In this document: positions 44,115-60,492 of the stretch, one piece after another | Position numbering within the stretch: position 1 is the first letter of the stretch | How the letters are laid out: the number at the start of each line of letters is the position of its first letter | Source: Fulvivirga imtechensis AK7 | GTDB taxonomy: Bacteria; Bacteroidota; Bacteroidia; Cytophagales; Cyclobacteriaceae | Assembly: GCF_000331535.1 (NCBI RefSeq) | Contig: NZ_AMZN01000070.1 | Coordinates: 62,001-126,000 of the forward strand | Direction of reading: 5' to 3' | DNA length: 64,000 nt | Position numbers and translations under genes: made by a program | Notes under the pieces: generated by a model | What the model saw: the letters and a program-made list of their open reading frames with translations, nothing else | What the model was told of the DNA's origin: nothing | The model's database searches: none

Positions 44115-44984
44115 ATGGAGCTCAAAAACATATTGAACAACGAATCTAAGTTGATAGAATACCTTATTATACCAATGATCATATTGGTTATAGCTTTTAT
44201 ATTTTCTAAAATCTTAAGATTGATCATGAGTAAATTTGTAAAAGCCGCTTCCTCCAAGCTGAATGTAGACCCTACGAAATATAATTTTTTAAAAAATGCG
44301 GTAAGTTTTATTGTTTTTATGATAGCTATTATAGTCATTTTTCAAAGTATCCCTCCTCTGCGTGCTTATGGTGTAACACTCTTTGCGAGTGCTGGTATTC
44401 TGGCAGCTATTGTTGGTTTTGCTTCTCAATCTGCATTTTCCAATATCATCAGCGGAGTATTTATAGTGATCTTTAAGCCTTTTCGCGTTGATGACATTAT
44501 AAACATTGGTGAATTACATGCCGGTGTGGTGGAAGACATAACGCTTCGTCATACAATCATCAAAAATTTCGAAAACAGAAGAATAGTGATCCCAAACTCT
44601 ATTATCAGCGAGCAGACCATTACCAATTCTACTCTTACAGAAGATAAGGTCTGTATGTTTGTATTCATGGGGATCAGTTACGATTCGGATATCGACTTAG
44701 CCATGAAGATCATCCAGGAGGAAGCAGAGAAACACCCTTTCCAGATTGATAACCGTAGCCAGGAAGATGTTGATAAAGGCATACCCGAAATTATTGTCAG
44801 GCTAATCGGCTTCGGTGATAGCTCTGTCAACCTGCGGGCCTCAGTATGGGCAAGCAACCCGCGCGATGGCTTTGCCATGAAGTGCGATCTGCACAAATCG
44901 ATCAAAGAAAGGTTTGATCAGGAAGGTATAGAAATACCTTTTCCGTATCGTACAATTGTTTATAAAGAAAAGAAAACAGAATAG
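44115..44984 (+). CDS. MscS family mechanosensitive channel
   Basis: The protein has three helices, with TM1 LIEYLIIPMIILVIAFIFSK and TM2 AVSFIVFMIAIIVIFQSI. The pore helix is LFASAGILAAIVGFASQSAF, followed by SNIISGVFIVIFKPFRVDDI, the conserved MscS beta-domain entry. 289 residues, close to E. coli MscS. It lies between the hydrolase and corA, both within a few bases, so channel and magnesium transporter are likely expressed together. Confidence 0.92.
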   Translation: MELKNILNNESKLIEYLIIPMIILVIAFIFSKILRLIMSKFVKAASSKLNVDPTKYNFLKNAVSFIVFMIAIIVIFQSIPPLRAYGVTLFASAGILAAIVGFASQSAFSNIISGVFIVIFKPFRVDDIINIGELHAGVVEDITLRHTIIKNFENRRIVIPNSIISEQTITNSTLTEDKVCMFVFMGISYDSDIDLAMKIIQEEAEKHPFQIDNRSQEDVDKGIPEIIVRLIGFGDSSVNLRASVWASNPRDGFAMKCDLHKSIKERFDQEGIEIPFPYRTIVYKEKKTE

Positions 44985-44986
44985 CT

Positions 44987-46087
44987 ATGCAATTACCCAG
45001 ATTATCCAAACTCCCCAAACTCGCAGGAATCCGCAACTCTCAGGCGAAAGCCGGACTACCTCCCGGAACACTGATATTTGTGGGTGATAAGGTAAGTGAC
45101 AAGTCGCAGGTAGATCTGATCGCTTATAACGAACATGAGATAGAGGAGTACAGCAGTCAAAATACTGAGCAGATCATCGGGCGACTGGACAAGACCAAGG
45201 TAAACTGGGTAAATATCGATGGCTTGCATAATGTTGATCTCATTGAGCAGATCGGTGAGCACTTTCACCTCCACCCTTTGTTGCTTGAGGATGTACTTAA
45301 CACAGAGCACAGACCCAAATCTGAAGATTATGCGGATCATTTATTTTTTGTGTTAAAGACTCTCTACAACCTCACCGGAGACTCTATAACCTATGAGCAG
45401 ATCAGCTTCGTGCTGGGCAAAAATTACCTACTTTCATTCCAGGAAAAAGAAGGTGATATCTTTGATGGTTTTAGGAACAGACTCCGGCAGATCAATAATA
45501 ATAAAAACCGGGCGCGAAAGAAGGGGTCCGATTACTTATTTTACCGGCTTATTGACACTGTTGTAGATGGATATTATTCTATTCTCGAGAAAGTGGGAGA
45601 GCGAATAGAGATACTTGAAGATGAAGTTTATGACAATCCTAGCAGAGCAACCTTAAAAAAGATACAACAACTAAAAAAAGAGCTTGTTTTCTTAAGAAAA
45701 TCAGTATATCCTTTACGAGAAGCTTTGAGTAAGGTGACTAAAGGAGAGTATTCTTTTATAAAAAAAGACACTCTTCCCTTTTTTAGTGACGTGTATGACC
45801 ACACCATTCATGTGATAGAAACAGTGGAAACTTATCGGGATCTGGTAACTGGTGTGATGGATATGTACATGACCAGTGTTAGCAACAGGATGAATGAGGT
45901 CATGAAAGTACTGACGGTAATAGCGACCATTTTTATTCCACTGACCTTCATTGTGGGGGTATATGGAATGAACTTTGAGTATATACCGGAGCTGAGTTGG
46001 AAATATGGATATTTTGGCACCTGGGGAGTAATGCTGCTGATCTGCATCGGTATGTTGATGTATTTCAAGCGTAAAAAGTGGTTGTAA
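44987..46087 (+). CDS. corA: CorA magnesium/cobalt transporter
   Basis: The C-terminus carries the selectivity motif YGMNFEYIPELSWKYG after the first membrane helix (IATIFIPLTFIVGV) and a second helix (YFGTWGVMLLICIGMLMYF) with the basic tail KRKKWL. The long N-terminal part is the cytosolic funnel (VNWVNIDGLHNVDLIEQIGE). 366 residues, intact. It imports Mg2+ (or Co2+/Ni2+) down the membrane potential. It starts 2 bases after the mscS stop. Confidence 0.94.
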   Translation: MQLPRLSKLPKLAGIRNSQAKAGLPPGTLIFVGDKVSDKSQVDLIAYNEHEIEEYSSQNTEQIIGRLDKTKVNWVNIDGLHNVDLIEQIGEHFHLHPLLLEDVLNTEHRPKSEDYADHLFFVLKTLYNLTGDSITYEQISFVLGKNYLLSFQEKEGDIFDGFRNRLRQINNNKNRARKKGSDYLFYRLIDTVVDGYYSILEKVGERIEILEDEVYDNPSRATLKKIQQLKKELVFLRKSVYPLREALSKVTKGEYSFIKKDTLPFFSDVYDHTIHVIETVETYRDLVTGVMDMYMTSVSNRMNEVMKVLTVIATIFIPLTFIVGVYGMNFEYIPELSWKYGYFGTWGVMLLICIGMLMYFKRKKWL

Positions 46088-49483: not shown

Positions 49484-51070
49484 ATGAAAACTCTTCTTAC
49501 TATTCTCATTTACATTTTATCCGGCACACTGCATGCTCAGAGTGACAAAATATCTAATAATGAGATCAGAAGGATAATTGAGCTTAAACAATACAACATT
49601 GATGGGGAATTGATGTTTTGCAAAAAAACATTGCCTGAATTCTACTTCGACAGGGCCTTCAAACCAGCCTGGACCAATGATGACAATATTTCAGAGCTAA
49701 TAGAGCAGATCAAGCTGGCGGAAAACGAGGGACTAAATACTTCAGATTATCATTATGAGTATTTAAAGACCAACTATACTGGTATGCATTCCTTAACTCC
49801 TGAGATGGATATTCTGCTCACAGATGCATATTTATTATTCGCATCGCATTTAATTGCAGGAAAGGTAGATCCGGTAACCCTAAATGCGGAGTGGAGGGCC
49901 ACCCGAAAGGAAACTAACTTAAAAAAACTGCTTGCCGAGGCGCTGGATAATATTGAAATAGCACGAAGCCTCAACAGCCTTAAGCCCACCTATAAAACTT
50001 ATGTGCGGTTAAAAAGCGCACTCAAGTCTTACCGGAAAATAAAATCCAACGGAGGCTGGCCCCGCATCCCAGAAGGGGAATCAATAAAACCCAAAGCCAC
50101 TGATCCGAGAATACCTCTTATCAGGAAAAGACTGGCTGTCACAGGCCTTCTTGCTCATGAACCGGTTGCAGACTCGCTTGTTTATGATGCAGAACTTGAA
50201 AGCGCGGTAAAAGTATTTCAAAAGAAAAACGGTCTGGAAGCGGATGGTGTCATTGGGAAAGGCACCTTTAACGTGATGAATGAAACTGTGGATAAGCGAA
50301 TACAACAGATAATTCTAAATATGGAACGCTGCAGATGGCTGCCACTTGACATGGGGGCGCATTACATTTTGGTAAACATAGCCAACTATGAGCTGGAAGT
50401 AGTAAAGAACAATGAACTGCAATTGGAAATGGATGTAGTAGTAGGCAAGCCATACCGCAAGACGCCCGTCTTTAGCCAAAAAATGCTCTATATTGTTTTT
50501 AACCCCTACTGGACTATACCCCCTACCATTTTACACAATGATATCATTCCTGCTGTTAGAAACAACTTAAATTACTTACGCAAAAACAACATAAAAGTAA
50601 TTAAAGGAAATACAGAGATCGATCCGTCTTCAATCAATTGGGCTGAAGCAAAACCGGGTAATTTTCCATACCAGCTCAGGCAGGACCCCGGGCTGGATAA
50701 TGCTCTTGGGGTGGTGAAGTTTATGTTTCCTAACCCCTACAATGTATACATGCATGACACGAATCACCGGGAACTTTTTAGTAAAACCGACCGGGCGTTG
50801 AGCTCAGGCTGTATCCGGCTTTCCCGCCCTATAGATCTGGCTGTTTATCTGCTAAAAGACCATCCGGCAGAATGGACAGAGGAGCGGATCAATAAGGTAA
50901 TTGGAAAAGATAAGAACTATACCGTTATGCTGGCAGAAGAGGTAGATGTACATATACTATACTGGACAGCTTTCGTTGATGAAAACGGATCGATTAACTT
51001 CAGAAAAGATATATACGACAGGGATGAGGTACTATGGCGCGCTCTGCAAAAGTCTCCGCCCTCTATTTAG
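49484..51070 (+). CDS. L,D-transpeptidase with peptidoglycan-binding domain (YcbB/LdtD-like)
   Basis: The enzyme should form 3-3 cross-links in peptidoglycan or attach proteins to it. A signal peptide (TLLTILIYILSGTLHAQS) is followed by a scaffold region, a PG_binding_1 domain (LESAVKVFQKKNGLEADGVI, about 245) and a YkuD catalytic domain from about 290 with His in VYMHDTNHRELFS and the nucleophilic Cys in RALSSGCIRLSRP. 528 residues. The stop TAG (51068-51070) lies in the target duplication of MITE copy 6, so the gene ends exactly at the insertion. Confidence 0.9.
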   Translation: MKTLLTILIYILSGTLHAQSDKISNNEIRRIIELKQYNIDGELMFCKKTLPEFYFDRAFKPAWTNDDNISELIEQIKLAENEGLNTSDYHYEYLKTNYTGMHSLTPEMDILLTDAYLLFASHLIAGKVDPVTLNAEWRATRKETNLKKLLAEALDNIEIARSLNSLKPTYKTYVRLKSALKSYRKIKSNGGWPRIPEGESIKPKATDPRIPLIRKRLAVTGLLAHEPVADSLVYDAELESAVKVFQKKNGLEADGVIGKGTFNVMNETVDKRIQQIILNMERCRWLPLDMGAHYILVNIANYELEVVKNNELQLEMDVVVGKPYRKTPVFSQKMLYIVFNPYWTIPPTILHNDIIPAVRNNLNYLRKNNIKVIKGNTEIDPSSINWAEAKPGNFPYQLRQDPGLDNALGVVKFMFPNPYNVYMHDTNHRELFSKTDRALSSGCIRLSRPIDLAVYLLKDHPAEWTEERINKVIGKDKNYTVMLAEEVDVHILYWTAFVDENGSINFRKDIYDRDEVLWRALQKSPPSI

Positions 51071-51216
51071 CGTTTGTAAGAAAAGTCTAAGTGGCTTTAA
51101 GAAAACGTTCCCGCCAGAGGGTGGTACGAAGTCCCAAAAAAGCAAAACGCACTAAGGTATGTGAGCATTGTTTGGGACGAGCGTAACGCGGATATTGACG
51201 TTTTCTTAGAGACACT
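51071..51216 (+). repeat. MITE-like element, copy 6
   Basis: The left end is CGTTTGTAAGAAAAGTCTAA and the right end (reverse complement) is AGTGTCTCTAAGAAAACGTC. A perfect 6-bp duplication ATTTAG flanks it (51065-51070 and 51217-51222). The duplicated bases include the TAG of the upstream L,D-transpeptidase. This is the best evidence that the family transposes. Confidence 0.85.
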
Positions 51217-51285
51217 ATTTAGCATTCATTTTCAATTTCTTCGTCCTTCAGATCTTCATTATCACCGTTCTCGAACTGTACTGTT

Positions 51286-52020
51286 CTACAGCAGATAGTT
51301 GCTGCTTTCAAGCATCTCATAAGCATTCGCTTCATTAGCCAACACAGACTTTTGGAGGTATTCTTTATCCGGATAATAGATAAATAAACAACTATTATTG
51401 GCTAATTTACCTATTAACTCCTTATGACCATCTATTGGAATAGACGGACACCCAAAGCTACGACCAATGCGTCCATACGCCTCTGTATACGACTTATCTA
51501 CATAGTCTGCACTGTGCATTACCACTGCTCTTTTACGTGCATTGTTGTTAAACCCCGGCTCCATACCGTCTAGTCTGAGAGAAAGACCATGTTTCCCATA
51601 ATAGGTCTCTGCTGTCAAATAAAAGCCCAGACTACTGCTATTCGAATTAGGTGTATTAGAAAATACTTTAGCAAACTCGTTGCCCGTGTTGCGGCCATGG
51701 GCTACCAGTGAGTGGTAGACGACCTTGTTCTGCTTAATATCTATTACCCACATCCGCTTTTTATTGGAAGAGAGGCGAAAATCTATCAGTGTCAAATATT
51801 TCGAATTAGACAGCTTATTCTGCTTTTTTAGGTTAAGGTAACCCACAATACCTCTTTTATATAGTTCAAAATCCGGCTTTTTGCCTTCATATTTAAGGAG
51901 GTTGTAAGTACTCTCAACAAAACTGGTTAATAACTCACTTTTTTCAGATTTGGGATCAATTGCGAAAATACTGGCTGATGAGATAAGTAGCATACTCGCA
52001 ATAACTAAAACTTTCTTCAT
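51286..52020 (-). CDS. Murein L,D-transpeptidase catalytic-domain protein (YkuD_2)
   Basis: A signal peptide (KVLVIASMLLISSASIFAI) is followed by a YkuD_2-type catalytic domain with RMWVIDIKQNKVVYHSLVAH, VVMHSADYVDKSYTEAYGR and the nucleophile in GRSFGCPSIPIDGHKEL. 244 residues. It differs from the two larger neighbours by lacking the scaffold and the PG-binding domain. It is divergent from the next gene, with a 217-base shared upstream region. Confidence 0.88.
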   Translation of the reverse strand: MKKVLVIASMLLISSASIFAIDPKSEKSELLTSFVESTYNLLKYEGKKPDFELYKRGIVGYLNLKKQNKLSNSKYLTLIDFRLSSNKKRMWVIDIKQNKVVYHSLVAHGRNTGNEFAKVFSNTPNSNSSSLGFYLTAETYYGKHGLSLRLDGMEPGFNNNARKRAVVMHSADYVDKSYTEAYGRIGRSFGCPSIPIDGHKELIGKLANNSCLFIYYPDKEYLQKSVLANEANAYEMLESSNYLL

Positions 52021-52237
52021 AGAATATCGGTTTTTCGTTTGTTTTATAGTTAATTAAGCTGCCAACCTTGTGACCAACGTAAGGAGTAGAAAAAAAATTT
52101 CATCACCTTTATTCAAATTCTAATTTCTTCGGAAATCAATACTCAGTTTGTGTAAAATTATGTACATAAAATACTCGTGTCTCAACCCGCAAATCACCTT
52201 ATTTCGTAAATAATAACGCTGGCATGCCTTTTTCATT

Positions 52238-54001
52238 ATGTTCGGCATGTTGGCAAAATATTCAAAGAACGCTTTCGGCTATTTCATTGCATTTGCATTA
52301 CTACTATTTATACAATGCAGCCGTGACAGGACACCAAGTACATCTAAAATAAATTCATTAAGCACCAGGCTGAATCCTGCAGATACTTTCAGCCATCACT
52401 TTTCAATGGAAGAGCCTCAGGTCGTCAGGGATCGTAGTAAGATCAGAGATAAGCTATTTAACTTTCTGGATACGCTTTCTATATCGGTCTATATTCATGA
52501 TGACCATAATAGAAAACACATTGAAAAGGAGCTAAGAGAATTTTACCGGCTCAATAATCATGATTTGTACTGGTCAAATGGCATAAAGCTGCTACCCACG
52601 GCTGATTTTATGCTCAATCAGCTACTGCTAGCTGAAACACATGGACTGGAATCAGATTATTATTCTGTATCTAAGCTTTTGAACCTTCAGCAAAAGGTAT
52701 TTGAAAAAGATAGTGAACCTAATGTACTACAGATCATTCATCTCGACATCCGTCTTTCTATTGCCTATGTCACCTATGCCTGGCATCTTCATAATGGTGC
52801 TATCAACGCTGAAAATGTTCCCGGCCGATGGGTCATCAACAGTAAAAATGCTTCGGTAGCAAGTATATTGGCAACTAATGGCATCAATGAAGCGCTAAAT
52901 ATGCTTGAACCAGCCCGACACTATAAACTATTAATGAAGGCTTTAGAGAAATACAGACAAATAGCTCACGAAGGAGGTTGGTCCACATTGCCTCCCGGCA
53001 CCGTTTTAAAAATAAATGATTGCGGGCCAAATGTACTTATTCTAGGTAAGCGACTAAAGGCTACGGGAGATCTGCGTGAGAAAGAGCCACTACAAGACTC
53101 TCTGTTTGATTCCCAACTAGAAAATGCTGTTAAAAGATTTCAACACCGCCATGGTTTAACAGTGGATGGCGTAGTTGGGAAAACTACACTGGCAGCTTTA
53201 AACATTCCTGTCGAGCAAAAAATCGATCAGATACTAATCAATCTGGAGCGTATGCGATGGAGATCCGGTGACAAAAATGATCGATATATTGAGGTAAATG
53301 TGCCTGAATATAAGCTGTATGCCTACGACAAGGGTGAAAAAACCTTGGAAATGAAAGTGATAGTTGGCAAAGAGAAAAGTGCAACACCCATTTTTAACGA
53401 CACCCTGGAATACCTTGTTTTTAGTCCGAGATGGACCATTCCGAAGAGTATTCTACATAAAGAAATTATACCTGCTATCGAAGCCGACCCTTCATACCTT
53501 GCCCGATGTGGTTATCAGCTATATGATAGCTGGGATAACAATGCCACACCATTAAGCACAGACTCTGTGACCTTAGAAACCCTGGCAAGATGTGAGGTAA
53601 TCCGCATTGTGCAGCCTCCGGGACCTAAAAATTCGCTTGGACAGGTGAAGTTTATGATGCCCAATAAAATGAATATCTACCTCCACGATACTCCTGCCGA
53701 CTATCTGTTTCTGCGGGATCAAAGGGCATTTAGCCATGGATGTATCAGATTAGAGTTTCCCGAACTGCTTGCAGACTACTTGTTGAGCGAATGGGATCTT
53801 TCAAAGGTGTTAGAAACGATGAACGAACCGGAGCCCTTTTATGTCAATCTGAAGGAAAGGGTGCCTGTATACCTGCTGTATCAGACTGCCTGGGTGGATA
53901 GCATTGGACTTGTAAACTTCAGAGAAGATATATACGACCATGACAAACTACAGCTAGCGCAGCTAAAAAATAGAAAAAAGGAATTGATGGCAGGAATCTA
54001 A
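52238..54001 (+). CDS. L,D-transpeptidase, membrane- or lipid-anchored (YcbB/LdtD-like)
   Basis: The N-terminus AFGYFIAFALLLFIQCSRDR carries a lipobox-like LFIQC, so it may be a lipoprotein or have a single anchor. After a scaffold region, a PG_binding_1 domain (LENAVKRFQHRHGLTVDGVV, about 290-320) leads to a YkuD domain with IYLHDTPADYLFLRDQ and the nucleophile in RAFSHGCIRLEFP. 587 residues. It resembles the gene at 49484 throughout (IPAxE repeats, WxxPKSILHKEIIPAI), so the two are paralogues. Confidence 0.9.
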   Translation: MFGMLAKYSKNAFGYFIAFALLLFIQCSRDRTPSTSKINSLSTRLNPADTFSHHFSMEEPQVVRDRSKIRDKLFNFLDTLSISVYIHDDHNRKHIEKELREFYRLNNHDLYWSNGIKLLPTADFMLNQLLLAETHGLESDYYSVSKLLNLQQKVFEKDSEPNVLQIIHLDIRLSIAYVTYAWHLHNGAINAENVPGRWVINSKNASVASILATNGINEALNMLEPARHYKLLMKALEKYRQIAHEGGWSTLPPGTVLKINDCGPNVLILGKRLKATGDLREKEPLQDSLFDSQLENAVKRFQHRHGLTVDGVVGKTTLAALNIPVEQKIDQILINLERMRWRSGDKNDRYIEVNVPEYKLYAYDKGEKTLEMKVIVGKEKSATPIFNDTLEYLVFSPRWTIPKSILHKEIIPAIEADPSYLARCGYQLYDSWDNNATPLSTDSVTLETLARCEVIRIVQPPGPKNSLGQVKFMMPNKMNIYLHDTPADYLFLRDQRAFSHGCIRLEFPELLADYLLSEWDLSKVLETMNEPEPFYVNLKERVPVYLLYQTAWVDSIGLVNFREDIYDHDKLQLAQLKNRKKELMAGI

Positions 54002-54147: not shown

Positions 54148-55110
54148 TCAACTCAAATCCTCCGGGTCAACCACCTTTTCCCTTATCAATTCCCGCATCA
54201 CGATCTCTGTCATATCACTTTTGAAGGCAAATTCATAACGGATATCCGACACATAAGCCTTGAGCCTCATTTTCAGATATGAGCGCCTTTCCTTTACTTC
54301 ATTAAAAAAAAGGACCACAATAGGCTTATTCAAAAATACAAACCTTGACACCTGAGCTGCTTCCATTGCAATCTGACGTACCTTATCTGTGTCTACTGTT
54401 ATGGGCAGATATATTTCTGCCACTACCTGACAGTTGGTTTCTCCGCTGTTAGAGTTCGAAACTGAAGTATTCATGATCTCGCTGTTAGGTACAGTTACCA
54501 GCGAATCATCCGGGGTAACAATACGGGTGGACCTCAATCCTATTTCCACTACCTCACCATAATGTGAGCCCACCTCTATCTTATCGCCTACCTGAAAAGG
54601 CCTGTCAAATAATATCATGATCCCCCCGAAAATATTCTTTAGAATATCCTGAGCAGCAAAGCCAACAGCTATACCCACTGAGGCGGTCACGGCCAAAACA
54701 GTGGCAATAGGTGGATGAAATACTCCAGCTATAATAATAAAAATAATAAAGAGCCAGATGGCGATATTAATAACCGGTATCAACCCCTTGATGGTAATCC
54801 TGTATCTCGGGCTTTTCTCTGCCAACCTGCCAAGAATAGAATCCAAAAACCTGACCAGGATATAGCCTGCCAGCATGAAGACCAGTGACCAGAATATCTT
54901 TCCTAGTGAAATAATATCAGACAACTTAGGCACCTCTGTCATTTTCTGCTCCACTCTGTCTACCACGGAAGTATCCTGAGGAGGTAAAGCGCTACTATCG
55001 CCATTGGCAACAACAATTACCTTCGGCACAGTATCTGCCTTTTGGCTTTGAGAAAGAGCCGGATGAAATGCTACCAGTATCAACCAAAGTACTGCAAATT
55101 TTGTCTTCAC
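54148..55110 (-). CDS. MscS family channel ending the rimB-rimK operon
   Basis: A signal peptide (KFAVLWLILVAFHPALSQS) precedes a short periplasmic linker and an MscS core: TM helices ILVRFLDSILG and VINIAIWLFIIFIIIAGV, pore helix VTASVGIAVGFAAQDILKNI, beta domain GGIMILFDRPFQVGDKIEVG. 320 residues. It starts 4 bases after the large ATPase gene and is the last gene of a five-gene minus-strand operon. The signal peptide and N-terminal extension set it apart from the other two MscS proteins in the window. Confidence 0.9.
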   Translation of the reverse strand: MKTKFAVLWLILVAFHPALSQSQKADTVPKVIVVANGDSSALPPQDTSVVDRVEQKMTEVPKLSDIISLGKIFWSLVFMLAGYILVRFLDSILGRLAEKSPRYRITIKGLIPVINIAIWLFIIFIIIAGVFHPPIATVLAVTASVGIAVGFAAQDILKNIFGGIMILFDRPFQVGDKIEVGSHYGEVVEIGLRSTRIVTPDDSLVTVPNSEIMNTSVSNSNSGETNCQVVAEIYLPITVDTDKVRQIAMEAAQVSRFVFLNKPIVVLFFNEVKERRSYLKMRLKAYVSDIRYEFAFKSDMTEIVMRELIREKVVDPEDLS

Positions 55111-55114
55111 TGTA

Positions 55115-58114
55115 TTAATGTATTATGTTCTTCATCCTTAACATATTAATAGTTTGCCTGTAGAGCAACGGATTGATTGTGTACTGCTCATTTTGCAATA
55201 CCGTAACACCATCTTCAAGCAAAGGTTGTAAAAGAGACCTGGTCTTACTACGTGAATAGCCGGTTACGTTGCAAAAATCCTGCTCCGACAACCTTTCATG
55301 AAGCAGCAGATTGGCAAGCACAAACACTTTTTCGGCTGGCAGGTTTTTCATAAATGAAAAATCGATCTCCTTTAATGAACCGATAAATATGGTATTCTCA
55401 TGGATCTCATTTGTTGATCGTAGCCAGTAGATCAACGCCAGGCTAACATTACTTCTTGCTATTTTATTCAAATCGCTGAAGTATGACCTTTCCAACATGG
55501 TCTGTTGCTCCTCTTTTCCGAGTCTTTTAAACTTCTTGTTATTAAGGTCCGAAGCTGCGGGTTCAAATTCAATATTATACCCACTAACCCTGTGACGCTT
55601 ATTGATGATATTGATAATCGTATCATCATCGAATTCCTTTAATAGCACCGTGTAACTAAAGTGGTCTGACAGGTTAATAGTCTTATTTAAATATTCCCAT
55701 GAATAGCTGGTGCAGCTCACAATCCAGAACACTTTTCGGCTGGTTAAAGAAAGTAACTCCGTAAAAAGCTTCAAGGCGCCAAAGCCATTCACCTTTTTGA
55801 GGTACAACCTTTGAATATTCTCCAAAACGATCACCTTCTTTTCGTGGTTGAGAAAAGTCACCAGCTCTTCTTGTGTGGTACATGCACAACCGAGCTCTTC
55901 CGACAAAAAAGATAATAGTTCGTCAGAAGTGTGATAATGCCTTCCGGGAGCAAATCTGTACACCTTACTGGCGGTAGAAAGATCCTGAAGGTAAAAGTTC
56001 ATTAATGTAGTAATACCACTCCCCTTTTCACCCACCACTGCTGCAGTTGCAAAACGTCCCTTCATCCAATTGTTGTAGGCATTGTTAAGATGCACCAGCT
56101 CTTCGGTGCGGCCTTCAAAAAAATTGGCGTCACTCAGTGGTTCTGTTTTAAATAGTCGTTGATAAACAAAAGGAAGTTTTTCAATAGATTTCTCTGTCTC
56201 CGCCAGAAAATCAGCTAGCTCTGTCGGAACGGCCTGCTGTCCCGAAATCCCATAACGCCTGAAAATCTTGTTGACAACCCCGGAAAACCTGGCATACTTC
56301 GTCTTAGCAAACAGAACAATAGCCGGCAACGTGTTCCTGAACCTGTTAATAAATTCTGCCTTATACTGCCTACTCCTTTCTACTGCCTTACCACGAGCTA
56401 TGCGTACCCTGACTTCATAGATGTTATCACTATTGGTAAATCGCACCAGGCTATCTCTGAATTTATCAAAGCCGCCCGAAAGATTTTCTTTTACATTTAC
56501 CGACAACCTGGCCAATGCTTCTTCAATGCCTTCTACTTTTTCAATCGTTCGTTTTATACCCTCCAGCGCGATTGATCTCGGATCATCACCGGCTTCGTTT
56601 ACCTCATATAGGGAAACGGCCGATTCCAGATTGAACTCAGCAATGTGTCCAATATCCATTACGCGATTTTGAAGTTGATTGAGCTGATCAGTTATGGCTA
56701 CTTTTGTGGATTTAAATACTTTAAGGAATTGTGGCCATGATTCAAAATTAACCAGTTCATACGGTGAAATGTAACTGATAGATCCACTACTGATGGGTTG
56801 TTCATAGTTCATCTTTCTAACCACTGCCCTACGTTCGGAAATTGCACGAATGCCCTTGTCAATCCGGCTTTCAAGATCATTAATAAGTGATGGCAGGTCT
56901 TGTGCCAGCATGAGTTGATTAGTATCCGGCACATATGAAGTTACCAACTCACGCTTCACTGATAGCAATTCCTTTTCAAGAATGTCTTTATTCGTTTTTT
57001 CATCTGATCGCTCAATGTCCTCCTTGCAGTGATTCAAAAATGATTTTATATGGCTGAGCTTCTGCTCAACTACAAGAGCAAGGCGCTCATCAAAAGTTAT
57101 CATATGGCTATGGTAGTCCTTCAATCCGGTATAGATTAAAGCATAAAGCTCAAGGTCTATCCCCCAATCGTCAGACAAAACCAGCAGCGTATTCTGCCAT
57201 CCCCTAACGAGCCTGGTGTATTTATTAACAAGTACACGATGCTTCTTTCGTTGGCGAGTTTGGCCAAATCGTCTGTTATTGACCTCTATTGTTCCCGCTT
57301 TCAGGTATTTATCCTGGAATTCCTCAAAAACTCCATTGTAAATGTCTTCGGCTTTATTTTTTAGATCAGTCTTTAGAGCCTGAAGTCGCCTTATTTCATC
57401 GCCTATCTTTTTCTCATGATTCCCGGGATGCGGAAAGCCAATGTCGCCAGTAGTCAAAAATCGACTGAAAGACAGGTCAATTTCTTCATCAACTTTCAGC
57501 AGTAAATGAGAAGATGATGTAAAAGCACCGTACATAATTTCTTCCAGCACTGACAAGCGGGAAGGCAGGATCTCCCGGAAATAATAAGCTGAAATGTTTC
57601 TGAACTCAATACTGTGTTTCCACAAAGGGAGTTCTTTTTTTGTTTCTTTAAAGAGGGTTCTAAAACCGTTAGCCATTTTAACGGGCAAAACAGAAAATGT
57701 GTAGCCGGTCCTCTTCCACCATTTTGCAAAGCCCAGCAAATAGGAATCCCCGCTTTGCATGCGAAAGCGCTCGCTGTCCTGTGGCCTGCTTACCTCTTTC
57801 GGCACAGTTTCCAGGTATACATTGAGCGCCTGATTGTAAGCCCGGTAATCTACATCAAAATGAACTTCCGGCTCAAAAGTAAAAAGAGCAGTAGCCAGCT
57901 TCAGAAGGTCTTCTTTATAACTGATGTGATGTAAAAGAGCCGGACGGACATTTGAAAAGTCATATTCGTATTTTAATATATCCGACTGCAGCTCTCCTGT
58001 TTTTTCGATGAATTGGATGTGATGGTCAATTTTTGCATTAAAAACAGGCAAATAGTACTCTTCAATGAGAGTTTTAAAATGTGTATATTGACTTTCCAGC
58101 TCCTTGTTCATCAC
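55115..58114 (-). CDS. Large predicted ATPase with altered P-loop (STAND/AAA16-like)
   Basis: The 999-residue protein has an N-terminal helical region of about 640 residues that I do not recognise, with coiled-coil stretches (about 235-270, 350-430, 470-580). From about 660 an ATPase module follows: ANFFEGRTEELVHLNN, a P-loop AAVVGEKGSGITTLMN (695-702, with Ile in the Lys position), a Walker-B-like KKVIVLENIQRLYLKK, and a C-terminal winged helix (HERLSEQDFCNVTGYSRSKT). No signal peptide or membrane helix is clear. It sits between the deacylase and MscS genes. The missing Lys suggests nucleotide binding with weak or no hydrolysis. Confidence 0.7.
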   Translation of the reverse strand: MMNKELESQYTHFKTLIEEYYLPVFNAKIDHHIQFIEKTGELQSDILKYEYDFSNVRPALLHHISYKEDLLKLATALFTFEPEVHFDVDYRAYNQALNVYLETVPKEVSRPQDSERFRMQSGDSYLLGFAKWWKRTGYTFSVLPVKMANGFRTLFKETKKELPLWKHSIEFRNISAYYFREILPSRLSVLEEIMYGAFTSSSHLLLKVDEEIDLSFSRFLTTGDIGFPHPGNHEKKIGDEIRRLQALKTDLKNKAEDIYNGVFEEFQDKYLKAGTIEVNNRRFGQTRQRKKHRVLVNKYTRLVRGWQNTLLVLSDDWGIDLELYALIYTGLKDYHSHMITFDERLALVVEQKLSHIKSFLNHCKEDIERSDEKTNKDILEKELLSVKRELVTSYVPDTNQLMLAQDLPSLINDLESRIDKGIRAISERRAVVRKMNYEQPISSGSISYISPYELVNFESWPQFLKVFKSTKVAITDQLNQLQNRVMDIGHIAEFNLESAVSLYEVNEAGDDPRSIALEGIKRTIEKVEGIEEALARLSVNVKENLSGGFDKFRDSLVRFTNSDNIYEVRVRIARGKAVERSRQYKAEFINRFRNTLPAIVLFAKTKYARFSGVVNKIFRRYGISGQQAVPTELADFLAETEKSIEKLPFVYQRLFKTEPLSDANFFEGRTEELVHLNNAYNNWMKGRFATAAVVGEKGSGITTLMNFYLQDLSTASKVYRFAPGRHYHTSDELLSFLSEELGCACTTQEELVTFLNHEKKVIVLENIQRLYLKKVNGFGALKLFTELLSLTSRKVFWIVSCTSYSWEYLNKTINLSDHFSYTVLLKEFDDDTIINIINKRHRVSGYNIEFEPAASDLNNKKFKRLGKEEQQTMLERSYFSDLNKIARSNVSLALIYWLRSTNEIHENTIFIGSLKEIDFSFMKNLPAEKVFVLANLLLHERLSEQDFCNVTGYSRSKTRSLLQPLLEDGVTVLQNEQYTINPLLYRQTINMLRMKNIIH

Positions 58115-58122
58115 AAGAGGGT

Positions 58123-59064
58123 TTATTCCATACCAATATGTAGCAACGCATCACCCATATTCACTACGGGGTAGTTATTAATGCCGATCACATAACCATT
58201 TACCGGTGACTTAATCACTTTTTCAAACTGGCCGTAAGGGTCTGTTATCAGTCCAAGCGCCTGGTTTTTCTCTATTTTGTTTCCATTGCGCACGTGTGCA
58301 TGGTGCAGACCGGCATACTTCGCGCGTATCCAGGTAGAATTTTTTATAAATATGGGTTGATGTACGGCCTCCGGAGCATCATCTCTCATACCAAGGTGGT
58401 TCATTACCCTTAACATACCACTAACACCCACATCCAGTACCTGTTTCCTAAGCCTTAAAGTTTCACCACCCTCGTATACCAGTATAGGCTTCCCTGCCTT
58501 TGCAGCCGTTTTCCTAAGTGACTTATCTCTAAAAGGAGATTCAATGATGAAAGGAGCTCCAAATGCTTTGGCTATTTCAAATTCTTCCTCGCTTTGAAAA
58601 CTGGCCCTGATCTGAGGATAGTTGTTATGACTTGCTCCACCGGTATGAAAGTCTATGCCGATGTCTACCTGTGGTAAAATTTCGCTGGTCATAAAGTGTG
58701 CGACACGACTGGCCAACGAGCCGGTTTTTGAACCGGGAAATGACCTGTTAAGGTCCTTTCCATCCGGAAGGCCTCGTGAGTGGTTGATAAAGCCATAAAC
58801 ATTAAATACCGGTATGGCTATCACGGTACCACGGGTAGGCTTATGATACTTATTACGAATTATCCTCCTGAGTATTTCTATACCGTTGGTTTCATCACCA
58901 TGTATCCCGGCCATCACCAGTAAAGTGGGCCCTGGTTTTTTTGCCCTGCTCACAAATACCGGTATGTTAATAGGAGTGCGGGTAGGCAACCTGGCAATCA
59001 GCGCATTGATCTGCACTTCCTCTCCTTTTTGAACCCTATGACCATCAATTATTATTTCAGGCAT
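58123..59064 (-). CDS. Succinylglutamate desuccinylase/aspartoacylase family deacylase
   Basis: A zinc carboxypeptidase-fold deacylase. The metal motif is [20 protein letters not shown] (His and Glu), with [17 protein letters not shown] giving the third ligand, and PRxF-like [16 protein letters not shown]. The C-terminal 90 residues ([20 protein letters not shown]) form a biotinyl-lipoyl-like domain. 313 residues. It overlaps the rimK gene by 8 bases and is followed after 8 bases by the ATPase. It should remove an acyl or amino-acid group; the substrate is unknown but likely matches what RimK adds. Confidence 0.88.
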
Positions 59065-59968
59065 TCACTTTATCTTTTTGAATTTTACTCTTTCTTCCTG
59101 AATTCCTTTCCAGGTATTCCACGATCTTACCCGCAATATCAATCCCGGTTGCATTTTCGATACCCTCCAATCCGGGAGAAGAGTTTACCTCCAGGATGAG
59201 TGGGCCTCGTGAAGACTGCAGCATATCAACACCCGCTACTCCAAGTCCCATTTTTTTGGCGGCTGCTATAGCTGCACTCTTTTCCTTTCTTGACAATTTA
59301 ATAACACTTGAGGTACCACCTCTATGAAGATTTGACCTAAACTCCCCCTCTTTCGCCTGTCTTTTCATGGCTCCAACTACTTCACCATCTACTACAAAAG
59401 CCCTGATATCAGCGCCACCTGCCTCCTTGATAAATTCCTGAACAATTACCCTGGCTTTCAGTCCATGAAAGGCCTCGATAACTGAGGCTGCTGACTTACG
59501 GTTATCAGCCAGAACAACTCCTAGTCCTTGTGTACCTTCAAGTAGCTTAATAATAACCGGAGCGCCACCAACAGCATTAAGAATATCATCCGTATCGCGC
59601 GAGTAGTTCGTAAATACAGTCTTGGGAAGACCTAATCCGGCTCTTGACATGATCTGGAGACTACGTAGTTTATCCCTGGACCGTATCAACGCCTGCGATT
59701 CGACCGCTGTAAACACCTTCATCATTTCAAACTGCCTGACCACGGCAGATCCATAAAAGGTAACGGACGCTCCTATACGGGGAACAATTGCATTAAAATA
59801 ATCAAGGGAACGGCCTTTATATATGATCGTAGGCTTGTTTTGTTCCATTACGATAGTGCATCTCAAGTGATCAATCACCTCCGCCTCATGACCCCTGTCT
59901 TCGCATGCCTCTACCAGCCTCTTTGTGGAATACAGATTCGGGTTTCTGGATAAAATCCCTATGTTCAT
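59057..59968 (-). CDS. rimK: RimK-family ATP-grasp amino-acid ligase
   Basis: RimK-type enzymes add glutamate residues to the C-terminus of ribosomal protein S6 or similar acceptors. The ATP-grasp fold is clear: [84 protein letters not shown] and the metal site [17 protein letters not shown]. 303 residues, like E. coli RimK (300). It overlaps the protease gene by 4 bases and the deacylase by 8. Confidence 0.92.
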
Positions 59969-60411
59969 TCTTTTCTACTTTTATTTCTAAATGATAAATC
60001 CTTCCTTGCCACATCCACAGTAAAACCCTTTTTGAGTAGCTTTCTCCCCAAGAGAATAGGAAACTTAAGATTACCTCTGTTGCTCAATGAAAAATCGGTT
60101 TTGAAATTTTTACCAAATAACGTGATAGTTGTATTAATAATAAACCGTTCTTCAGAATCACCGAATGAGTTCTTTATTTTCCTTTGCTCAAACTCTTCAA
60201 AATAAAAGCTTCTGTCGTTATAGTCAGGATGTGTCGGATCCAACAAAGTAAAGTGTAAAACGGTCTTACCTTCGCGCTCGATCAATTCAGCATGATGATA
60301 ATGTATGGCTGACGTAAAAGCCCCGGTGTCCACTTTTGCTTCAAGTTCGAAAAGGTGTAACTCCGGGAGATCAATTTTATCACTTCTACCTATTGTATAC
60401 TTTTTCTTCAT
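59965..60411 (-). CDS. RimB-like retropepsin-fold protease (annotated as ATP-dependent zinc protease family)
   Basis: The small protein carries [20 protein letters not shown], the DTGA motif of retropepsin-like aspartic proteases, followed by [20 protein letters not shown] as the flap and second loop region. In Pseudomonas the homologue RimB is made next to RimK and processes its S6 product. I start at the ATG at 60411; an alternative TTG start 12 bases upstream lies in a palindrome and is less likely. 148 residues. It is the first gene of the operon. Confidence 0.88.
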
Positions 60412-60435: not shown

Positions 60436-60463
60436 AATATAAATGTTAATTCGATATAATAAA

Positions 60464-60492
60464 AAAAGCCGGAACTATCGGGTCCGGCTTTT
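60464..60492 (-). terminator. Terminator after the DUF2911 gene
   Basis: On the minus strand AAAAGCCGGA pairs with TCCGGCTTTT around 8 bases and runs into TTTATT. It separates DUF2911 from the rimB-rimK operon. Confidence 0.8.

What the first reader, a model, noticed from the sequence alone, without database searches (positions are those of the whole stretch)
54148..60411. Five-gene operon joining a RimK ligase, RimB-like protease and deacylase to a large ATPase and an MscS channel
Seen in the sequence: five minus-strand genes with overlaps of 4 and 8 bases and gaps of 8 and 4 bases encode a retropepsin-fold protease, a RimK-type ATP-grasp ligase, an AspA/AstE-type deacylase, a 999-residue ATPase and an MscS channel. 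Known: RimK with RimB modifies ribosomal protein S6 in Pseudomonas, and RimK/deacylase neighbours occur in other bacteria. The coupling to an unknown STAND-like ATPase and a mechanosensitive channel is, to my knowledge, not described. Inference: a writer (RimK), two erasers and a membrane sensor may form a stress circuit, for example tension-controlled tagging of a protein or small molecule.
Basis: partly seen in the sequence, partly recalled or inferred. Interest (0 to 1): 0.78.

Follow-up and report, generated by a model that had tools for sequence, protein, structure and literature searches.

The report
ATPase-MscS osmotic module with RimK operon
A large, unnamed ATPase gene is nearly always found beside its own dedicated pressure-relief channel gene, and in related bacteria it is fused to or sits next to ion transporters, so it probably helps these bacteria control salt and turgor; in this genome and some relatives it shares an operon with enzymes that add and remove glutamate.

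Summary
The five genes, overlaps and gaps are as described, but they are two units. (1) RimB-RimK(-AspA) is an ordinary cassette, common in this order. (2) ATPase and MscS are a conserved pair: MscS adjoins the ATPase in 16 of 16, 79 of 80 (two cut by contig ends) and 20 of 20 loci in three overlapping sets. Partner channels group apart from the host's eight other MscS proteins. In relatives the whole ATPase is the C-terminal half of an SLC12/KCC-type transporter (9 of 9 tested) or, once, a Na+/H+-exchanger-like one; TrkA/TrkH sit beside some. This points to ion and turgor control. The RimK link is no one-strain accident: upstream in the window plus 7 of 80 loci, downstream in another clade (5 of 80), loosely in a third genus; in 68 of 80 loci, some on short contigs, no Rim gene was seen nearby. 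The ATPase has an ORC/STAND-like core, yet 66 of 76 sequences lack the canonical P-loop lysine. The host's S6 does not end in glutamate, so S6 tagging is doubtful. Best reading: a nucleotide-controlled MscS/ion-transport module, co-expressed in some lineages with reversible glutamylation. Function is inferred from genomes only.

The parts
59965..60411 (-). RimB-like retropepsin-fold protease (PF05618), DTG active-site motif visible (VDTGA)
   Evidence: PF05618 80 bits (cut-off 27); NCBIfam RimB equivalog 66 bits (cut-off 200, not met)
59057..59968 (-). RimK ATP-grasp alpha-L-glutamate ligase
   Evidence: NCBIfam PRK10446 390.5 bits (cut-off 331)
58123..59064 (-). AspA/AstE-type zinc deacylase
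   Evidence: PF24827 1.4e-40; best NCBIfam DoeB 91 bits (cut-off 402.7, not met)
55115..58114 (-). 999-aa soluble ATPase: long helical N-terminal region (about 1-620), ORC/STAND-like P-loop domain (about 650-850), winged-helix-like end (about 920-995), conserved C-terminal NIIH-type tail
54148..55110 (-). Dedicated three-TM MscS channel, partner of the ATPase; short hydrophobic N-terminus (signal-peptide-like by eye only)
60461..60488 (-). Terminator-like hairpin plus T7 between DUF2911 and RimB: likely upstream boundary of the five-gene unit
   Evidence: sequence printed, read by eye

Best explanation
The operon joins two modules. The core is an ATPase-MscS pair. Inferred: a cytoplasmic ORC/STAND-type nucleotide switch works on a dedicated MscS-type channel, most likely at its cytoplasmic face, so that opening of the channel or the activity of an associated K+/Cl-/H+ transporter depends on the cell's nucleotide, ionic or crowding state as well as on membrane tension. 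In sister branches the transporter is fused to the ATPase (KCC/SLC12-like, or Na+/H+-exchanger-like) or encoded beside it (TrkA-TrkH, CPA, CorA). Here no transporter directly adjoins it. In the Fulvivirga group this pair lies behind RimB-RimK-AspA. The simplest reason is co-expression: glutamate is the usual counter-ion of K+ (recalled), and reversible (poly)glutamylation by RimK, undone by RimB and possibly AspA, would be a second arm of the same osmotic or ionic response, acting on an unknown acceptor that is probably not S6. Shown: genes, pairing, fusions, dedicated channel group, recurrent RimK linkage. Inferred: contact, gating, osmotic role, glutamylation target.
For: MscS next to the ATPase in 16 of 16 loci, 77 of 80 or 79 of 80 counting two cut off at contig ends, and 20 of 20 (18, two more by six-frame search); before the ATPase in 9 of those 20, so the pairing survives rearrangement. 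75 partner MscS lie on one side of a branch, 8 own paralogs and 3 second MscS on the other (100/97). Distance-matrix correlation 0.74, 0 of 999 permutations as high. The ATPase profile aligns to the C-terminal halves of seven ~1700-aa proteins over 838 columns, E 1.4e-47. Their N-terminal halves carry AA_permease in 9 of 9 tested; the one searched against PDB hits KCC4 at E 1e-82. An MscS-like gene lies nearby in 8 of these 9 loci. A 1501-aa form carries Na_H_Exchanger (1 of 3 tested). TrkA/TrkH beside the ATPase in 5 of 80 and 4 of 20. RimK linkage in different orders in different clades.
Against: No experiment shows contact or gating. RimK linkage is seen in only 12 of 80 loci; none of 19 RimB loci read in the window's order had the ATPase or MscS among the genes shown beside it. 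A single old linkage with many losses is not ruled out by the tree. Co-occurrence of PF05618 with the ATPase: 37 of 41 chosen full-length ATPase genomes and 49 of 72 against 59 of 323 in the phylum draw (p 6e-16), none corrected for descent; in one family 11 of 12 against 19 of 34 for full-length ATPases (p 0.035) but 11 of 14 against 19 of 32 with weak hits (p 0.32); in the order 8 of 11 (p 0.12), full-length 4 of 5 (p 0.19). The canonical Walker A Lys is absent in 66 of 76, so ATP hydrolysis is uncertain. Delta-rimB had no hypoosmotic phenotype in P. aeruginosa (PMC12239564). Shared descent alone also raises the 0.74 correlation.
Confidence: 0.6

Rival explanations
1. The five genes are a single signalling circuit: RimK tags a protein, RimB and AspA remove the tag, and tension sensed by MscS through the ATPase controls tagging.
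For: Tight operon in the window and 7 of 80 loci, another linkage in 5 of 80; Rlo retropepsins and an ATP-grasp protein act in hypoosmotic tolerance in P. aeruginosa (PMC12239564, passages).
Against: No Rim gene seen near ATPase-MscS in 68 of 80 loci (some on short contigs), and no ATPase or MscS beside 19 of 19 RimB loci read in the order. The transporter fusions need no glutamylation step. S6 lacks a terminal Glu.
Confidence: 0.2
2. RimB-RimK-AspA and ATPase-MscS merely share a promoter: operon merging with no functional link.
For: The cassette is absent between DUF2911 and the ATPase in Fulvivirga M361 (L065); each unit is often seen alone.
Against: Linkage is found in two separate clades in different gene orders, plus a loose third, and has persisted at low sequence identity (window ATPase against L070/L071 37-38%).
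Confidence: 0.25
3. The ATPase-MscS pair is an anti-phage or conflict system: a STAND sensor with a membrane-permeabilising MscS effector.
For: ORC/STAND-type fold matches, plant NLRs among them; channel effectors exist in defence (recalled).
Against: No PADLOC match for the five window proteins; one SLC12 fusion (L054) gave a weak mad8 match, E 0.003. Fusion to SLC12 or exchanger-like transporters and Trk neighbours are not what I would expect of defence. Defence-island context was not tested.
Confidence: 0.05

Closest known systems
MscS-family mechanosensitive channels (E. coli MscS)
   Same: Three predicted TM helices, glycine-rich pore helix, beta domain (PF00924), cytoplasmic domain
   Different: C-terminal signature seen in 54 of 75 partners and 0 of 8 own paralogs; near-constant ATPase neighbour; no MS_channel_3rd match
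STAND / ORC-Cdc6 type P-loop ATPases
   Same: P-loop core; best Foldseek hits ORC2, PABY2304, ORC/Cdc6 chains; NLRs lower
   Different: About 600-residue helical N-terminal region; displaced P-loop Lys (GEKGSGxT); no Pfam or NCBIfam family above cut-off
SLC12 cation-chloride cotransporters (KCC/NKCC)
   Same: N-terminal half of the ~1700-aa relatives; KCC4 E 1e-82 for L058
   Different: Fused to the ATPase and mostly near an MscS-like gene; no transporter in the window operon itself
Pseudomonas RimABK / RimBK
   Same: RimK above the S6-ligase equivalog cut-off; RimB-family protease directly before it
   Different: AspA-type deacylase, ATPase and MscS downstream; no RimA; S6 lacks C-terminal Glu
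P. aeruginosa RloABC
   Same: Retropepsin-like protease plus ATP-grasp protein, linked to hypoosmotic stress (PMC12239564, passages)
   Different: No RloB (inactive transglutaminase-7TM) among the five; RimB here shows no signal peptide by eye

Membership tests
RimK S6--L-glutamate ligase | Sequence above the NCBIfam equivalog cut-off | tested here: met
   PRK10446 390.5 against 331 bits
RimK S6--L-glutamate ligase | S6 with C-terminal Glu acceptor in the same genome | tested here: not met
   S6 ends KEEAAS; the requirement itself is recalled from E. coli
RimB aspartic endopeptidase | PF05618 domain with DTG motif | tested here: met
   80 bits against 27; VDTGA
RimB aspartic endopeptidase | NCBIfam RimB equivalog cut-off | tested here: not met
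   66 against 200 bits
MscS channel | MS_channel_2nd domain and TM pore helix | tested here: met
   86.3 bits against 20.2; three TM helices in a model of low confidence, pLDDT 65
MscS channel | Tension-gated conductance | not testable with these tools
   needs patch clamp
STAND NTPase | P-loop NTPase core fold | tested here: met
   model pLDDT 89; ORC2 E 3.1e-7, PABY2304 1.1e-6, Roq1 1.5e-4; TM-scores normalised by query are about 0.2 because only the C-terminal part aligns
STAND NTPase | Winged helix after the core | tested here: inconclusive
   helix/strand order at 927-994 fits and the ORC2 alignment spans 413 columns; no separate domain test
STAND NTPase | Canonical Walker A Lys | tested here: not met
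   Lys at position 701 in 10 of 76; Ile in the window; 6 of 7 SLC12 fusions aligned keep it
STAND NTPase | Match to a Pfam STAND family above cut-off | tested here: not met
   only AAA_22 sub-threshold; nSTAND1/3 sub-threshold in relatives
RloABC | RloB inactive transglutaminase-7TM in the operon | tested here: not met
   no such protein among the five
Known anti-phage systems | Match to PADLOC models | tested here: not met
   0 of 5 window proteins at E 0.01

The most novel reading that the evidence does not exclude
A so-far undescribed bacterial volume-control system. An ORC/STAND-type switch, in most stand-alone members with a displaced P-loop lysine (perhaps a nucleotide or ion sensor rather than a motor), physically couples a dedicated MscS channel to K+, Cl- or H+ transporters. 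The sister forms fused to KCC-type transporters would be switch-controlled K-Cl cotransport in bacteria, with RimK-made poly-glutamate as the counter-ion or signal arm in some lineages.
Probability: 0.35. Interest if true: 0.88.

Novelty: new variant of a known kind. Interest (0 to 1): 0.68.

Why it matters
MscS channels are textbook tension-gated valves thought to need no partner (recalled). A family of large ATPases that is nearly always encoded beside one MscS group, and is fused in sister branches to KCC-type transporters, suggests that some bacteria put these valves under a nucleotide-dependent switch and wire them to K+/Cl- transport. It also gives the common but poorly understood RimB-RimK-AspA cassette a testable physiological context outside ribosome modification. 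Genomes of named strains of Fulvivirga, Aquimarina and Polaribacter hold the pair.

Tried and rejected
The first genome-contig scan with the single ATPase found nothing; the alignment query worked and kept the best 80 of 109 relatives. The S6-tagging idea was tested through the S6 C-terminus and weakened. The defence idea was tested with PADLOC and not supported. Phylogenetic-profile co-occurrence of RimB and ATPase depends on the set and on how weak hits are counted, so it is not used as proof. ATPase profile search of PDB sequences gave only coiled-coil and P-loop matches, best E 0.0022. A simple regular expression for a Bacteroidota-type promoter (motif recalled) found nothing on the operon strand between 61300 and 54000. 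The MscS model is of low confidence (pLDDT 65) and is used only for topology; its N-terminus passes no 19-residue hydropathy cut-off of 1.6.

Literature: ten searches of the open PMC library. No paper on an ATPase-MscS-transporter module or on RimK with MscS was seen in the listings, but the listings (20 of 64; 20 of 1,043; 10 of 113) were capped, and subscription papers and preprints are not held. Seen as passages only: PMC10219603, PMC12239564, PMC10092738, PMC4230888, PMC4301019, PMC4431377. PMC10219603 reports K05844, which I take to be rimK, among genes more frequent in brackish than in marine genomes.

Left out of tallies: L153 had no RimB ORF in my caller (19 of 20 RimB loci counted). 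Loci of set 1 (L037-L052) partly repeat named loci (for example G371 and L080 share a contig length), and the phylum draw may overlap too, so the three sets are not added. Weak or partial ATPase hits (L006-L011, L016-L025, L035-L036) were not counted among the 16 full-length loci; of these, L053, L057 and L062 were read further without a transporter fusion being shown. For the third set I fetched 20 of the 71 other ATPase-positive genomes of the phylum draw, chosen by hand to include unusual lengths. L063-L142 trees used 75 rows including the window (six loci with short ATPase or MscS or no MscS were dropped).

Full report
What is there. Pfam and NCBIfam identify a PF05618 retropepsin-fold protease (RimB-like), a RimK above its equivalog cut-off, an AstE/AspA-type deacylase and an MscS channel. 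The 999-aa protein has only a sub-threshold AAA_22 match. The same-strand DUF2911 gene upstream is closed off by a terminator-like hairpin with seven T (60488-60461, sequence), and a convergent L,D-transpeptidase gene follows MscS. The host is a 6.7-Mb genome. The closest named relatives of the ATPase are in Fulvivirga (49-50% identity).

Two units, not one. Relatives of the ATPase were collected in three partly overlapping ways: 16 full-length loci from genome samples, 80 named loci, the best of 109, from a scan of GTDB contigs, and 20 loci taken from 20 of the 71 other positive genomes of a 395-genome phylum draw. MscS is the immediate neighbour in 16 of 16. It is the next gene in 77 of 80; two of the other three are cut off by contig ends and show an MscS start, which leaves L103 as the one locus without it. 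It is the neighbour in 20 of 20 of the third set (18, two more by six-frame search), in 9 of them before the ATPase rather than behind it. By contrast, RimK lies within eight genes in 12 of 80, RimB in 11 and AspA in 9; 57 of the 80 loci show at least three genes before and four after the ATPase. None of the 16 loci of set 1 showed a Rim gene in the stretch fetched. Conversely, RimB matches occur in 91 of 194 genomes of the order. Of 20 such loci fetched, 19 were readable: RimK follows in 17 of 19, AspA follows RimK in 9 of 19, and neither ATPase nor MscS was among the genes shown beside any of the 19. So RimB-RimK(-AspA) is a common cassette and ATPase-MscS is a separate conserved pair.

The channel is dedicated. 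The host genome has nine PF00924 proteins. In an unrooted tree of 75 ATPase-linked MscS, eight own paralogs and three second MscS from other loci, the linked channels lie on one side of a branch (ultrafast bootstrap 100, SH-aLRT 97); the paralog branches are very long, so the tool warns of possible false joins. A C-terminal signature is present in 54 of 75 linked channels and in 0 of 8 paralogs. Pairwise distances of ATPase and MscS correlate at 0.74, with 0 of 999 permutations as high; shared descent alone also raises this figure.

The ATPase. AlphaFold gives mean pLDDT 89 (pTM 0.70) from 76 sequences: a long helical region (about 1-620), a P-loop domain (about 650-850) and a winged-helix-like end (about 920-995). 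No 19-residue stretch passes a TM hydropathy cut-off, and the C-terminal tail is conserved (for example KNIIH, KNILH). Foldseek's best PDB matches are ORC2 of Aeropyrum (E 3.1e-7), PABY2304 of Pyrococcus (1.1e-6) and Cdc6/ORC chains, with plant NLRs lower. In 66 of 76 sequences the canonical P-loop lysine is missing; a Lys or Arg sits four residues earlier in 67 of 76 (GEKGSGxT in the window). This may mean nucleotide binding without normal hydrolysis; that is inference.

Links to ion transport. In ~1700-aa relatives the ATPase forms the C-terminal half: profile-profile alignment over 838 columns, E 1.4e-47. The N-terminal half is SLC12-type: AA_permease in 9 of 9 tested, KCC4 at E 1e-82 for the one searched against PDB (L058). 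An MscS-like gene lies nearby in 8 of these 9 loci (L054, L055, L058-L061, L180, L181; with a gene between in L055 and a 416-base gap in L058), not in L056. These fusions mostly keep the canonical P-loop lysine (6 of 7 aligned). In ~1500-aa relatives the N-terminus is Na+/H+-exchanger-like in one of three tested (L163, E 7e-19; no such hit in L165 and L166), and TrkH and TrkA genes lie beside L163-L166 (Pfam-checked in L166). Five of the 80 named loci read TrkA-TrkH-CPA-ATPase-MscS (Pfam-checked in L098). In some Flavobacteriales loci a second MscS and CorA follow (L104, Pfam). The window has an MscS-CorA pair about 8 kb beyond the operon, at 44115-46087.

The RimK link. The window arrangement, DUF2911-RimB-RimK-AspA-ATPase-MscS, recurs in 7 of 80 loci, five of them labelled Fulvivirga. 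Fulvivirga M361 has DUF2911-ATPase-MscS without the cassette (L065); in F. aurantia (L066) the contig begins inside the ATPase. In five metagenome loci (three Cyclobacteriaceae, one Cytophagales, one labelled Bacteroidia) the Rim genes follow MscS instead, sometimes after a second CPA gene. These five form one clade of the ATPase tree (SH-aLRT 100), while the window group lies inside another 17-row clade that also holds nine rows without upstream Rim genes in the group list. Different gene orders in separate clades suggest repeated linkage; one old linkage with many losses is not ruled out. In a third genus (three genomes of the phylum draw), RimB-RimK lie about 3-5 kb from MscS; in two the ATPase is next to that MscS, in the third it is on another short contig, and opposite-strand genes lie between, so this is a neighbourhood and not an operon.

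Co-occurrence. PF05618 is present in 37 of 41 chosen full-length-ATPase genomes. Over 395 phylum genomes it is in 49 of 72 ATPase-positive and 59 of 323 other genomes (Fisher 6e-16, not corrected for descent). Within one family it is 11 of 12 against 19 of 34 for full-length ATPases (p 0.035), or 11 of 14 against 19 of 32 with weak hits included (p 0.32); within the order 8 of 11 (p 0.12), full-length only 4 of 5 (p 0.19). The linkage is repeated but optional, and the profile evidence is mixed.

Mechanism. Most likely, ATPase and MscS act together at the inner membrane in ion and turgor control, with the ATPase as a switch for channel or transporter. This follows from near-constant pairing, a dedicated channel group and transporter fusions; contact and gating are inferred. 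Why RimK? Glutamate is the usual counter-ion of K+ (recalled), RimK can make poly-alpha-glutamate and RimB-family proteases cleave it (PMC12239564, passages), and related Rlo proteases are needed for hypoosmotic growth in P. aeruginosa. Against this, deleting rimB there had no hypoosmotic effect (same paper). S6 is a poor candidate target here, as its C-terminus is EEAAS.

Verdict. I saw no description of the module in ten searches of the open PMC library, three of them with capped listings, and that library does not hold most subscription papers or preprints. I call it a new variant of a known kind (regulated osmotic/ion transport) because function is untested; the composition itself matched no family or system above cut-off in the libraries searched.

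Noticed in passing
window 44115-46087: A second MscS (289 aa) directly followed by CorA (Pfam E 8.7e-77); a like MscS-CorA pair directly follows ATPase-MscS in L104 and lies near it in L064.
   Followed up: partly
window 49484-54001: Three L,D-transpeptidase-type genes next to the operon (two checked by Pfam, the third by eye); homologues also lie beside the operon in L064 and L069.
   Followed up: no
L174, L175: Short ATPases (413 and 380 aa) that keep only the P-loop and C-terminal half still sit next to MscS: a possible minimal form. Two related genomes (G480, G507) show a stop inside.
   Followed up: partly
L054-L056, L058-L061, L180, L181: About 1700-aa proteins joining an SLC12/KCC-type transporter to the ATPase; no description seen in the library searched.
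   Followed up: partly
family f54 genomes: Many PF05618 (RimB-like) hits lie in open frames of about 460-495 aa, so the protease is probably fused to another domain there.
   Followed up: no
L100, L105, L110: Three Ancylomarina ATPase-MscS loci share an unidentified 621-aa gene on the opposite strand just after MscS.
   Followed up: no
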